From Chthoniobacteraceae bacterium (GTDB lineage Bacteria; Verrucomicrobiota; Verrucomicrobiia; Chthoniobacterales; Chthoniobacteraceae): a stretch of DNA of 48,854 nucleotides. Below the pieces are notes generated by a model. That model saw nothing but the letters and a program-made list of their open reading frames with translations, had not been told where the DNA came from and made no database searches. A program made the position numbers and the translations under genes. Below, piece after piece: positions 25,303 through 28,616 of the stretch. The stretch lies in contig CANIWM010000046.1 of assembly GCA_947471505.1 (NCBI GenBank), forward strand, positions 1 to 48,854, given 5' to 3'. Each line of letters opens with the position of its first letter. The stretch's first letter is position 1.

Positions 25303-25500
25303 ATGAGTGTTCTGACCATACGCATTTCGGAGAAGGAGAAAACCACGCTCGCTCGCCGCGCCAAGGAGGAGGGAACGACGACCGGAGCACTCGTGCGGAG
25401 GATGATTCAGGAGCGCCCGTTTACCACAGCGGCGGACCTGCTCGCGGAGATGGATTCGCTCATGGGTGATAAGCGGCTGGCCATTCGGAAAAGGCCGTGA
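25303..25500 (+). CDS. Ribbon-helix-helix-like antitoxin
   Basis: A 65-aa protein. MSVLTIRISEKEKTTLARRA and GTTTGALVRRMIQE match the beta-strand and two-helix arrangement of CopG/ribbon-helix-helix DNA-binding antitoxins; the C-terminal part is the presumed toxin-binding tail. The ATG at 25303 is chosen because the fold begins there; upstream in-frame sequence overlaps the zinc-ribbon ORF on the other strand. Its stop overlaps the toxin start by GTGA. Confidence 0.8.
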   Translation: MSVLTIRISEKEKTTLARRAKEEGTTTGALVRRMIQERPFTTAADLLAEMDSLMGDKRLAIRKRP

Positions 25501-25883
25501 ATGCGCTGCTGGATTCTTCCTTCCTGATCGACCTCCTCAACGAACTCGCTTCGGCGAAACCCGGCCCGGCGTGCGCTTGGCTGGCCCGGAACCGCCATAT
25601 GCGACTTTGGGTTAGCGCGGCGAGTGTGGCGGAAGTCCTGGAAGGTGCCGATGACATCGACGCGGTGCGCGAGTTCCTGAGCCGTTTCGGCTGGCAGGGG
25701 CTGCATCACGCTCATGCTGCCCGAGTCGCGCTCCTTCAGCGCCGAGCGACCCACCGGATGGGAGAAAATGATGCGTGGCAGGCTGCGGTGGCTATGGAAA
25801 TGCGTGGCAAGATTGTCGGCCACGATCCGAAGGCATTTGCGCGCCTCGGGGCGATGTATTGCGACCATCGGGCGAAAGCGTGA
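25497..25883 (+). CDS. PIN-domain ribonuclease toxin (VapC-like)
   Basis: A 128-aa protein starting with GTG at 25497 in a GTGA overlap with the antitoxin stop. Active-site acids are D6 in LLDSSFLIDLL, E43 in SVAEVLEG, D92 in GENDAWQAAVAM and D109 in GHDPKAFARL. It belongs to a different PIN subgroup from the one at 11934, with a ribbon-helix-helix partner rather than the MSTLAEIE partner. The predicted action is Mg2+-dependent RNA cleavage. Confidence 0.88.
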   Translation: MNALLDSSFLIDLLNELASAKPGPACAWLARNRHMRLWVSAASVAEVLEGADDIDAVREFLSRFGWQGLHHAHAARVALLQRRATHRMGENDAWQAAVAMEMRGKIVGHDPKAFARLGAMYCDHRAKA

Positions 25884-26042
25884 GCGGCGCGGCGTTCGTC
25901 ATTTCCCCATACACCCGCACCCAATCACTTTTCACCGCTCTCCCGCTTGCCAAATGCGGGGTGCGGATTATTTTTTGCGGCATGAATCTGCTCCTTCTTA
26001 TGAACATTCTGCGCGCCGTGGGTCGGCGCTTGGGGAGGCTTT

Positions 26043-26048
26043 TATAAT
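26043..26048 (+). promoter_or_regulatory. Possible -10 element of the XRE regulator gene
   Basis: TATAAT lies 17 bp before the ATG at 26066. No good -35 hexamer is found at the usual distance, so the promoter would depend on an extended or activated form, or the match may be chance. The rest of the 182-bp gap 25884-26065 holds no gene. Confidence 0.35.
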
Positions 26049-26065
26049 GGGAGGCTCGATGGTGC

Positions 26066-26413
26066 ATGAAGGCCGGACGCAAAGCAAAGTGTGTGTGCAA
26101 GCCTCGCAAGGCGATGCCGGTGCCGCCGCCCGATTTGGTTTGCCCGGTGTGTGCGGCGTTTGGGCGCGTGTTGCGGGCGGAACGATTGCGGCAGGGGCTT
26201 TCGCAGACTGAACTGGCACGGGCGGCGGGTGTGGGGCGCTCTTCGGTGAGCGATGTGGAGGCGGGCAAGGGCGGCGGGCCGGAGCTGGACTGGGGGACGC
26301 GCATCGCGTTTGCGCTGGGGGTGCCCTTTGATGAGCTGGCGCGTCTGGCTCGACTGGAAGTGGCGAAGGCAGAGGCGAAAGCATCGACCAAGCCACAGCA
26401 CCCGTCGGTATAA
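26066..26413 (+). CDS. XRE-family transcriptional regulator with N-terminal cysteine cluster
   Basis: A 115-aa protein. Residues about 34-92 form a Cro/C1-type helix-turn-helix (LRQGLSQTELARAAGVGRSS, then VSDVEAGKG). Ahead of it, C9, C11, C26 and C29 (CVC and CPVC) could bind zinc. The C-terminus is a short Ala/Lys helix. It is followed after only a few bases by the open frame that contains the 42-bp repeat array, then by the WDSG-leader protein, so all three could be one transcript. It may regulate this locus or the toxin-antitoxin pair just upstream. Confidence 0.85.
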   Translation: MKAGRKAKCVCKPRKAMPVPPPDLVCPVCAAFGRVLRAERLRQGLSQTELARAAGVGRSSVSDVEAGKGGGPELDWGTRIAFALGVPFDELARLARLEVAKAEAKASTKPQHPSV

Positions 26414-26442
26414 CGACCGTGCCAGATGCGCCTCTCGGGGGT

Positions 26443-26952
26443 ATGGTGGCACTCATGAAAAGGAGCGACTCCGATTTCAGGGAAACTCAGCTTCCGGGCG
26501 CTGCAACCATACTGGTTGGCGACCACCGGAGTCTCCCCTCACCGCCAACCACGCTGGTTGGCGACCACCGGAGTCTCCCCTCACCGCCAACGATGCTGGT
26601 TGGCGACCACCGGAGTCTCCCCTCACCGCCAACCATGATGGTTGGCGACCACCGGAGTCTCCCCTCACCGCCAACCATGCTGGTTGGCAACCACCGGAGT
26701 CTCCCCTCACCGCCAACCATGCTGGTTAGCGGCCACCGGAGTCTCCCCTCACTGCCAACCATGCTGGTTGGCAACCACCGGAGTCTCCCCTCACTGCCAA
26801 CCATGCTGGTTGGCGACCACCGGAGTCTCCCCCAACCGCCAACCATTATGGGTACCATAATGAGGAGCCTGTTTTCCGACCGTTCCATCGGCGGAGCGCG
26901 CACTCCTTTCCACCACCTGCATCCACCTTATGTCGCCGCCAAACTGGGATGA
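26443..26952 (+). CDS. ORF composed of 14-aa repeats (42-bp array), coding status uncertain
   Basis: From ATG 26443 (GTG 26419 also possible) the frame is open to 26952. Eight units of 14 residues, typified by MLVGDHRSLPSPPT, run through the array, followed by about 35 non-repetitive residues. Because the period is a multiple of three and units lack stops, the two other informative frames, including the minus strand (GEGRLRWSPTS units), are open as well, so no frame can be called coding with certainty. It begins 29 bp after the XRE gene and its end overlaps the start of the WDSG protein at 26930. Confidence 0.35.
   Translation: MVALMKRSDSDFRETQLPGAATILVGDHRSLPSPPTTLVGDHRSLPSPPTMLVGDHRSLPSPPTMMVGDHRSLPSPPTMLVGNHRSLPSPPTMLVSGHRSLPSLPTMLVGNHRSLPSLPTMLVGDHRSLPQPPTIMGTIMRSLFSDRSIGGARTPFHHLHPPYVAAKLG
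26514..26849. repeat. 42-bp tandem repeat array, 8 units, each with an embedded hairpin
   Basis: The GGTTGGC word recurs at 26514, 26556, 26598, 26640, 26682, 26724 (variant), 26766 and 26808, an exact 42-bp spacing with no indel. Each unit ends in CCAACCA-TGC-TGGTTGG, a 7-bp stem with a 3-nt loop, separated by CACCGGAGTCTCCCCTCACC. Unit differences are single-base. There are no unique spacers, so this is not a CRISPR. Confidence 0.9.
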
Positions 26953-27961
26953 AGGTTCGTGGGACAGCGGCTCGTGGGATTCTCCGACGCCGCCCGTTTT
27001 CGTCCCCCTTCCACAAAGTAAAAAACCAATAAACCGCAAAACCATGGCCAGCAATCCAACACCCGAAGACGACGACCTCCTCTGCGCACTCGCCGAGGAC
27101 CTCGCCGATGGCGCTAACCTTCACGAAGGGCCCATCGGCATCAAACAAAACACCGAAGCCGTGCTTCGCGCCGCCATCGCCGCGACGGTAGCGGCAAAGC
27201 TCGCACTGGGGGGCGCGCGAAATGCGCTCGAAGACTTGGTCGATGCCCGTCAGGCGGCGGACGTGGCCGGGACCGAGGTGCTGCGCAATTGCCGCCTCCG
27301 CCTCGTGAAATTATTCGGTGCGCGATACACTGCGCAGTGGGGACAGGCGGGATTTCCCAACCAGTCCACCGCGATCCCGGATGCACAGGATGCGCGCTTC
27401 ACCCTGCTGAACGCGCTGAAGGCTTACTTCGTCGCAAATCCATCCGCAGAGAGCGTGGATATGGAGGCAACCGCCGCGATTTGCACCGCAGCACACACCG
27501 CTCTGAGCAATGCGCGTCAGGCCGAAAACACCGGCGAACAAGCCGTGACGGATGCGAAAGCCGCCGAAGCCGCTGCAGTGAAAACCCTGCGCAAACGCGT
27601 GCGCGGGCTCATCGAAGAACTCGGCCAGCTCATCGCCGACGATGATTCGCGCTACGAGGCATTCGGCCTGAACATTCCGGCACATCCGACCGCGCCGGAG
27701 TCCCTCACCTCGCTCACCGCCGAGCCGCAGGGCGGAGGAAAAGCGCACTTCTCATGGCCCTACGCCACGCGCATGACCGGCACCCGAATCATGGGCAAAC
27801 GCATCGGCGTGGACGACGAGGCGCACTCCCTCGGCACCGCCGAAGGACTGGAGAAAACATTCACCGGCCTCGCCCCGGGCAACTGGGAATTCTCGGCAAT
27901 CTCCTACAACGAAGGCGGCGACGCCCCCGCCAGCCCGACGGTGCAAGCGACGATCACTTGA
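26930..27961 (+). CDS. WDSG-leader helical protein with C-terminal FN3-like domain, unknown function
   Basis: 343 aa from ATG 26930, or 305 aa from ATG 27044 (MASNPTPEDDD). The optional leader holds WDEGSWDSGSWDSPTPP, a Trp-Asp-Ser-Gly repeat followed by a Pro-rich and Lys-rich linker ending KTM. I recall similar leaders in proteins of this phylum, so I keep the longer form. Residues 40-270 are largely helical (KQNTEAVLRAAIAATVAAK, TLRKRVRGLIEELGQLIADD), and FGLNIPAHPTAPESL leads into about 80 residues with a beta pattern like fibronectin type III (FTGLAPGNWEFSAISYNEGG). There is no signal peptide or catalytic motif. It follows the 42-bp array directly and precedes a nuclease-like gene. Confidence 0.7.
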   Translation: MSPPNWDEGSWDSGSWDSPTPPVFVPLPQSKKPINRKTMASNPTPEDDDLLCALAEDLADGANLHEGPIGIKQNTEAVLRAAIAATVAAKLALGGARNALEDLVDARQAADVAGTEVLRNCRLRLVKLFGARYTAQWGQAGFPNQSTAIPDAQDARFTLLNALKAYFVANPSAESVDMEATAAICTAAHTALSNARQAENTGEQAVTDAKAAEAAAVKTLRKRVRGLIEELGQLIADDDSRYEAFGLNIPAHPTAPESLTSLTAEPQGGGKAHFSWPYATRMTGTRIMGKRIGVDDEAHSLGTAEGLEKTFTGLAPGNWEFSAISYNEGGDAPASPTVQATIT

Positions 27962-28091
27962 TCTTACCGACGGAAGTCGGGGACTACTTTCGCAAGCGTG
28001 CTTCGCCGACACGCTCGCGACTGGCGGGCCACTTTGTATCTGTTAAATTGACCTCCCACCGCTTTTGATCGTGAACTCAGAAAAATCCAAA

Positions 28092-28616
28092 ATGAGTTAT
28101 CCCGAAATCAAGAAAAAGCTGAACGCACTGTTTGAGGCCAAAGTCGCTCTTCGAGCTGACGGAGTTCTTCGCTCCGAAAGAATTACTGGCGAAATCGGGG
28201 AATGGTTTGCCGAAAAGGCATACGATGGAAACCGCGCTCAAGCGACGTCCAACAAAGGGTGGGATATAATCCAGCAAGTTACAGCCGACAAAAAGGAAAG
28301 ATTGCAGGTAAAGGCTCATGCAAAAGGGCGCGATAACAATGCTCGATGGACCGAGGTTAATCCCGACCGTTTCGACAATTTCAACCGTTTGATAATCGTC
28401 GTCATGGGCGATGACTATCTCATCAAGGAATGGTACGATATCCCGTCAAAGGATTTGAAGTGGCTCTCAGTCAAATCAGGAGGGGCAAGGATTGTGAATT
28501 GGGATGACGCCAATGAAGGCGGCTTTAAGAAGAATATTTCCGAATTGCCGAATGGTAAATCCTTGAGCGAGTTCATCGCTGTGGACGACTTCTCCCTTTT
28601 GGGGGACGGGGATTAG
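28092..28616 (+). CDS. PD-(D/E)XK nuclease-like protein
   Basis: A 174-aa protein from ATG 28092; TTG 28065 would add 9 residues. ITGEIGEWFAEKAY (E34/E37), NKGWDII (D58) and LQVKAHAK (Q72, K74) have the spacing of a PD-(D/E)XK endonuclease core, with Q in place of the usual second acid, as in several restriction-like families. This would be a Mg2+-dependent DNA cleavage or DNA-binding protein. Codon use is clearly more AT-rich than in neighbours, so the gene was probably acquired horizontally. No methylase accompanies it. The 130 bp before it contain a short GCAAGCGTG/CACGCTCGC inverted repeat and no gene. Confidence 0.6.
   Translation: MSYPEIKKKLNALFEAKVALRADGVLRSERITGEIGEWFAEKAYDGNRAQATSNKGWDIIQQVTADKKERLQVKAHAKGRDNNARWTEVNPDRFDNFNRLIIVVMGDDYLIKEWYDIPSKDLKWLSVKSGGARIVNWDDANEGGFKKNISELPNGKSLSEFIAVDDFSLLGDGD

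What the first reader, a model, noticed from the sequence alone, without database searches (positions are those of the whole stretch)
26514..26849. Eight exact 42-bp units, codon-periodic, open in several frames, each with a 7-bp hairpin
No indel has broken the 42-bp (14-codon) period, yet units carry point differences. CCAACCA-TGC-TGGTTGG recurs in each unit, so a transcript would be a string of hairpins. The array can be read as protein on either strand. Selection on frame and on hairpins at once would be unusual; it might be a coding repeat, an RNA scaffold or a protein-binding array.
Basis: seen in the sequence. Interest (0 to 1): 0.78.

Follow-up and report, generated by a model that had tools for sequence, protein, structure and literature searches.

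The report
Phased palindrome arrays before FN3 genes
The eight 42-base repeats are one of a genome-wide class of repeat arrays whose sequence differs from place to place but whose spacing stays at whole multiples of two turns of the DNA helix; they sit just upstream of a family of genes of unknown role and look like stacked docking sites for a regulator, not like a protein or an RNA.

Summary
The array is real: 8.2 units of 42 bp at 26504-26846, no indels. The palindrome holds in most units but is broken in two, and all six reading frames score as non-coding.

It is not a one-off. It lies between an XRE-type helix-turn-helix gene (26066-26413) and a 343-aa gene (helical domain plus fibronectin-III domain; called P343 here). 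Homologues of P343 have a tandem array of period ~41/42 bp or a multiple within 700 bp upstream in 21 of 31 cases and downstream in 0 of 30. The array sequence differs from locus to locus, even between proteins 77-92% identical. In a sample of 800 kb of the same genome, 10 of 11 arrays have periods of 42, 63 or 105 bp. Across 23 arrays, self-similarity peaks only at 21 bp, and dyads recur at 21 and 10.5 bp. Ten arrays have a co-directional XRE gene upstream. G.T and A.C mismatches are equally common, so nothing favours an RNA hairpin.

Best reading: helically phased arrays of dimer operators, probably bound by the neighbouring XRE protein, controlling the FN3 gene. Binding is inferred, not shown. 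I found no description in the papers searched.

The parts
26066..26413 (+). XRE/HTH_31 helix-turn-helix gene, 115 aa; first gene of the recurring HTH - array - FN3 order
   Evidence: Pfam HTH_31 E 1e-12, HTH_3 E 1e-10; same order at other array loci
26504..26846 (.). Tandem array, 8.2 units of 42 bp, consensus CAACCATGCTGGTTGGCGACCACCGGAGTCTCCCCTCACCGC
   Evidence: TRF; unit alignment; single place in this genome
26503..26519 (.). First copy of the main dyad (AACCA-N3-TGGTT); repeats every 42 bp at 26545, 26587, 26629, 26671, 26713, 26755, 26797
   Evidence: pattern search, 13 matches against 0.09 expected
26528..26536 (.). First copy of the second, shorter dyad GGAG-T-CTCC, centre 21 bp after the main dyad; repeats every 42 bp
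   Evidence: sequence; GGAG-A-CTCC at the same offset in Phragmitibacter (L107)
26840..26854 (.). Decayed ninth half-unit (CAACCATTATGGGTA) at the downstream end
   Evidence: unit alignment
26930..27961 (+). P343: 343-aa protein, helical N-terminal domain and C-terminal fibronectin type III domain, no Pfam/NCBIfam family; Met39 (27044) is invariant in the family and may be the real start
   Evidence: no family; alignment A1; model matches FN3 chains in the PDB

Best explanation
The array is a DNA-level control region: a row of palindromic sites laid out with a 21-bp (two-turn) module so that dimeric DNA-binding proteins sit side by side on one face of the helix. It controls the P343 gene that follows. 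In this clade the most likely binder is the XRE-type protein encoded directly upstream, giving a self-contained cassette: HTH regulator gene - its own operator array - FN3-domain gene. Units are gained, lost and homogenised as whole 42-bp units, so array sequences turn over and diverge between loci quickly while spacing and dyad symmetry are kept; copy number would tune the strength of repression or activation. Shown: position, recurrence, period, dyad phasing, unit-number change, gene order. Inferred: that a protein binds, that it is the XRE protein, that it regulates the FN3 gene, and the direction of the effect.
For: Arrays of period 41/42 or multiples lie within 700 bp upstream of 21 of 31 P343 homologues and downstream of 0 of 30, and upstream of 3 of 4 full-length testable members of a second FN3 family with periods 21, 42 and 63. 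In an 800-kb sample of this genome 10 of 11 tandem arrays have periods of 42, 63 or 105; two genomes of other families show no 21n array in 200 kb each. Across 23 arrays the only self-identity peak is at lag 21 (z 4.0) and the dyad signal recurs at lags 21 (z 3.5) and 10.5 (z 2.9). Dyad arms vary less than the rest of the unit (0.052 v 0.080 per site). Co-directional XRE domains lie 154-326 bp before the array in ten loci, although the same profile finds only 3 per 800 kb in the sample. P343 proteins 77% (C46/C29) and 92% (L227/L234) identical have unrelated arrays of the same period. Related genomes carry the same unit at 5.7 v 3.7 and 9.6 v 3.5 copies.
Against: No binding or expression data. 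Several array loci, mostly beside more distant P343 homologues, show no XRE gene within reach. HTH similarity tracks array similarity only through one near-duplicate pair (Mantel r 0.61, p 0.013; without it r 0.16, p 0.27), and L220 and L233 have similar main dyads beside dissimilar HTH proteins. Ten of 31 homologues have no detected array. The second dyad is weak or displaced in many arrays. Most loci come from one family of genomes, so they are not fully independent.
Confidence: 0.5

Rival explanations
1. RNA element: the array is transcribed as the 5' leader of the P343 message and acts as a run of hairpins (stability, termination or an RNA-protein scaffold).
For: Palindromes recur in most arrays, the array folds far better than shuffles (z -13.5), and it lies between two co-directional genes.
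Against: Stem mismatches show no G.T excess on the gene strand (21 G.T v 19 A.C). A phase of 10.5/21 bp and multiples has no reason in RNA. The best fold pairs units with each other instead of forming separate hairpins. Related units occur in both orientations: L289 and L302. No Rfam match.
Confidence: 0.15
2. Neutral minisatellite: slippage and unequal crossing-over amplified arbitrary intergenic DNA, and palindromes simply help slippage.
For: Units are gained and lost as wholes; sequences differ from locus to locus; intergenic tandem repeats are common in Planctomycetota (PMC9426551).
Against: Does not explain why the period is held to 21n in unrelated sequences, why arrays lie upstream and never downstream of one protein family, or the lower substitution rate in dyad arms.
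Confidence: 0.2
3. A protein other than the neighbouring XRE binds the arrays, for example a nucleoid or partition-type protein acting on all 21n arrays of the genome.
For: Many arrays have no XRE gene beside them and arrays occur genome-wide; C46 and C14 share the AACCATGCTGGTT core although C14 has no XRE gene beside it.
Against: A single common binder should keep one common site, whereas unit sequences are mostly locus-specific.
Confidence: 0.13
4. Coding repeat: a 14-residue repeat protein is made from the array.
For: 42 bp is 14 codons and two of the six frames are open through the array.
Against: Negative coding score in all frames; substitutions are not concentrated in third positions of an open frame (units); sister arrays of 22 and 41 bp cannot hold a frame.
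Confidence: 0.02

Closest known systems
Multi-operator control regions of lambda-type/XRE repressors (OR/OL; from general knowledge)
   Same: Palindromic sites about two helical turns apart, adjacent HTH_3-type regulator gene, sites between the regulator gene and the gene it would control
   Different: Up to 16 dyads in tandem instead of three; unit sequence specific to each locus; the array turns over by whole units; binding not tested
REP/BIME palindromic repeats and RAYT-associated REPs (PMC3733652 treats the GTAG/CGTC-tagged kinds)
   Same: Intergenic palindromes in many copies
   Different: Here tandem with a fixed 21n period, a different sequence at each locus, tied to one protein family; not dispersed copies of one sequence
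Variable-number tandem repeats in bacterial promoters (phase variation; from general knowledge)
   Same: Copy number of an upstream repeat differs between relatives
   Different: Long palindromic units in helical register; variation seen here between species, not within a population
Intergenic tandem repeats of Planctomycetota (PMC9426551)
   Same: Intergenic arrays that gain and lose units in environmental genomes
   Different: The passages read report them in general, without period, dyads or a gene family

Membership tests
XRE/lambda-type multi-operator control region | Adjacent gene for an HTH_3/HTH_31 regulator | tested here: met
   HTH_31 E 1e-12 in the window; ten array loci
XRE/lambda-type multi-operator control region | Dyad-symmetric sites spaced in helical register | tested here: met
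   Dyad autocorrelation peaks at 21 and 10.5 bp
XRE/lambda-type multi-operator control region | The regulator's specificity matches the sites | tested here: inconclusive
   Mantel r 0.61 with, 0.16 without one near-duplicate
XRE/lambda-type multi-operator control region | The regulator binds the sites and changes transcription | not testable with these tools
   Needs binding and reporter assays
REP/BIME repeats | One conserved palindrome dispersed in many copies over the genome | tested here: not met
   The unit occurs only at this place; one further array shares only the 13-bp core
Coding tandem repeat | Coding signal in the repeat's frame | tested here: not met
   All six frames negative
Structured RNA family | Match to a described family | tested here: not met
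   No Rfam match in the window at gathering cut-offs
Structured RNA family | G.U-tolerant stem conservation on one strand | tested here: not met
   G.T 21 v A.C 19
CRISPR array | Repeats separated by unique spacers | tested here: not met
   Head-to-tail units with no unique spacers

The most novel reading that the evidence does not exclude
A widespread cassette in this lineage - XRE gene, locus-specific operator array with a 21-bp module, FN3-domain gene - in which regulator and operator array diversify together while period and dyad symmetry are held, so that each paralogue gets its own insulated switch set by the number of repeats.
Probability: 0.35. Interest if true: 0.85.

Novelty: new variant of a known kind. 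Interest (0 to 1): 0.68.

Why it matters
Conserved spacing without conserved sequence is unusual for bacterial regulatory DNA. If the neighbouring regulators really read these arrays, the paralogues of one genome form a ready-made set of protein-DNA pairs for studying how new DNA-binding specificities arise and how the number of tandem operators sets gene output. It also gives a handle on a large family of FN3-domain proteins of unknown function.

Tried and rejected
Array DNA in phages, plasmids: no match. Array DNA in 39 other genomes of the family: none; in the phylum sample only short chance-like matches, plus the sister array on C14. P343 in viral contigs, phages, plasmids: none, so no sign of a phage origin. 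PADLOC: no defence family for P343. PHROGs: only insignificant matches. Two dyads per unit at exactly 21 bp do not hold in every array taken singly; only the pooled signal is significant. MAFFT broke the register of the dyads, so pair counts were made in fixed register; those dyads were chosen for symmetry, so that count is descriptive only. The stem-versus-rest comparison uses stems chosen from the consensus and non-independent units, so its P value (5e-4) is optimistic. Promoter and terminator scan of 26000-27100: nothing. Loading the whole genome was not available; stretches were sampled instead, as that message suggested. Literature searches returned nothing on this architecture, within an open-access library only.

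Full report
1. The observation. TRF finds one array at 26504-26846: period 42, 8.2 copies, 93% matches, no indels. Aligned units differ from the consensus CAACCATGCTGGTTGGCGACCACCGGAGTCTCCCCTCACCGC at one to three bases each. The 17-bp core palindrome matches 13 times in the window on the two strands with up to three mismatches, 0.09 expected. Two units have unpaired changes in a stem arm. The unit occurs at one place in the genome, contig C46 of a 6.07-Mb assembly in 153 contigs.

2. Not coding. Two frames run open through the array and the others contain stops. A hexamer score trained on long open frames of the same genome is negative in all six frames of the array and positive for the neighbouring genes. 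Sister arrays have periods of 22 bp (C14) and 41 bp, which cannot keep a frame.

3. The surroundings. Upstream is an XRE-type gene (26066-26413, HTH_31 E 1e-12). Downstream is a 343-aa gene, here P343, with no Pfam, NCBIfam or PADLOC family and only insignificant PHROGs matches. A two-sequence AlphaFold model (mean pLDDT 70) has long helices and a C-terminal beta sandwich that matches fibronectin type III domains in the PDB.

4. Recurrence. A search for the paired palindrome in other genomes found arrays of the same period in a groundwater Verrucomicrobia bacterium (L040) and a Phragmitibacter (L107). In L040 the spacer is unrelated, yet the array again lies between an HTH gene and a P343 homologue. 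P343 homologues occur in 9 of 40 genomes of the family, often in several copies, and in a few other families of the phylum. Under one uniform test, 21 of 31 homologues have an array of period near 42 or a multiple within 700 bp upstream, and 0 of 30 have one downstream. A second, distantly related FN3 family shows periods of 21, 42 and 63 upstream in three of four full-length testable members.

5. The period is the conserved thing. In 800 kb of this genome taken without regard to P343, 10 of 11 arrays have periods of 42, 63 or 105. A congener without a P343 hit has three of seven (21, 21, 42); two genomes of other families have none in 200 kb each. Array sequence is locus-specific: P343 pairs with 77% (C46/C29) and 92% (L227/L234) identity have unrelated arrays. 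Pooling 23 arrays of 41-42 bp, self-identity within the unit peaks only at lag 21 (z 4.0), and dyad symmetry recurs at lags 21 (z 3.5) and 10.5 (z 2.9). These are two helical turns and one.

6. Dyads. About half of 29 arrays have a best dyad beyond what shuffles of the unit reach at p<0.05. Positions in dyad arms depart from the consensus less often (0.052) than the others (0.080, with the caveats given under tried and rejected). In related arrays the dyad changes on both arms together: C1 CCGAGA-T-TCTCGG against C4 CCAGA-GAT-TCTGG, with the rest of the unit nearly the same; within the C29 array one unit has GCCCGA...TCGGGC for GCCGGA...TCCGGC. G.T and A.C mismatches on the gene strand are equally common (21 and 19), as expected for duplex DNA and not for an RNA hairpin. 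The minimum-energy RNA fold pairs units with each other rather than giving separate hairpins.

7. Unit number. The C29 array has 5.7 units and its close relative in G032 (L218) has 3.7, with the outer units the same or nearly so; C1 has 9.6 units and its relative L227 has 3.5 with an identical consensus. Change is by whole units.

8. The HTH gene. A profile made from the first finds places XRE domains upstream of and co-directional with the array in ten loci: window, L247, L248, L249, L250, L227, L040, L199 (broken into two frames), L315 (second family) and L282 (the gene beyond the array is off the contig, so its direction is not seen). The same profile finds three such domains in the 800-kb sample, one of them beside an array. 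Many loci with more distant P343 homologues have none.

9. Mechanism. The anatomy is that of an operator array: dyads on one face of the helix, a regulator gene before it, a target gene after it. XRE dimers bind odd-centred palindromes of about this size (general knowledge of the HTH_3 class). I judge the DNA-level operator array likely, the identity of the binder less so. The test whether HTH similarity follows array similarity was inconclusive.

10. Novelty. Each part is of a known kind. The combination - a period fixed at 21n in arrays of unrelated sequence, linked to one protein superfamily and partly to an adjacent XRE gene - was not found in the papers searched. Intergenic tandem repeats as such are reported for Planctomycetota (PMC9426551). 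The window's own taxon is not told; a place in Verrucomicrobiota is inferred from the named relatives only.

Noticed in passing
L196 9891-10178 (G000:C14, about 87890-88177): A second array in the same genome, 13 copies of 22 bp (TCAACCATGCTGGTTGTCGCCG), shares the AACCATGCTGGTT core with the window array but has another spacer and period; it lies upstream of a gene with 165-bp coding repeats, not of P343.
   Followed up: partly
window 26930-27043: P343 begins with a leader rich in WDxG motifs (NWDEGSWDSGSWDSP) that scores weakly as coding and is shared with an otherwise different protein (L243), so it may be a separate module; Met39 is invariant in the family.
   Followed up: partly
L243 1159-1416, L279 16809-17109, L296 9030-9216, L275 16608-16860: Arrays of 21, 42 or 63 bp also precede other small proteins of no known family (265, 316, 320 and 254 aa).
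   Followed up: partly
L289 2080-2371 and L302 19559-19802: Two loci of this genome carry the same 42-bp unit family in opposite orientations, with no P343 gene seen beside them.
   Followed up: no
window 28065-28616: Gene after P343 resembles a type II methyl-directed restriction enzyme (PADLOC mREase_II E 4e-6; Pfam DUF6998 below cut-off).
   Followed up: no
window 25304-25883: A ribbon-helix-helix/PIN-domain pair that looks like a toxin-antitoxin module lies just upstream of the XRE gene.
   Followed up: no
L040 2736-5942: In the groundwater Verrucomicrobia relative a Cas9-like gene (by eye, not tested) lies about 1.6 kb from the array.
   Followed up: no
L036 5285-5399: Three TGTAACCA-N3-TGGTTACA operator-like palindromes close together in another Verrucomicrobia genome.
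   Followed up: no
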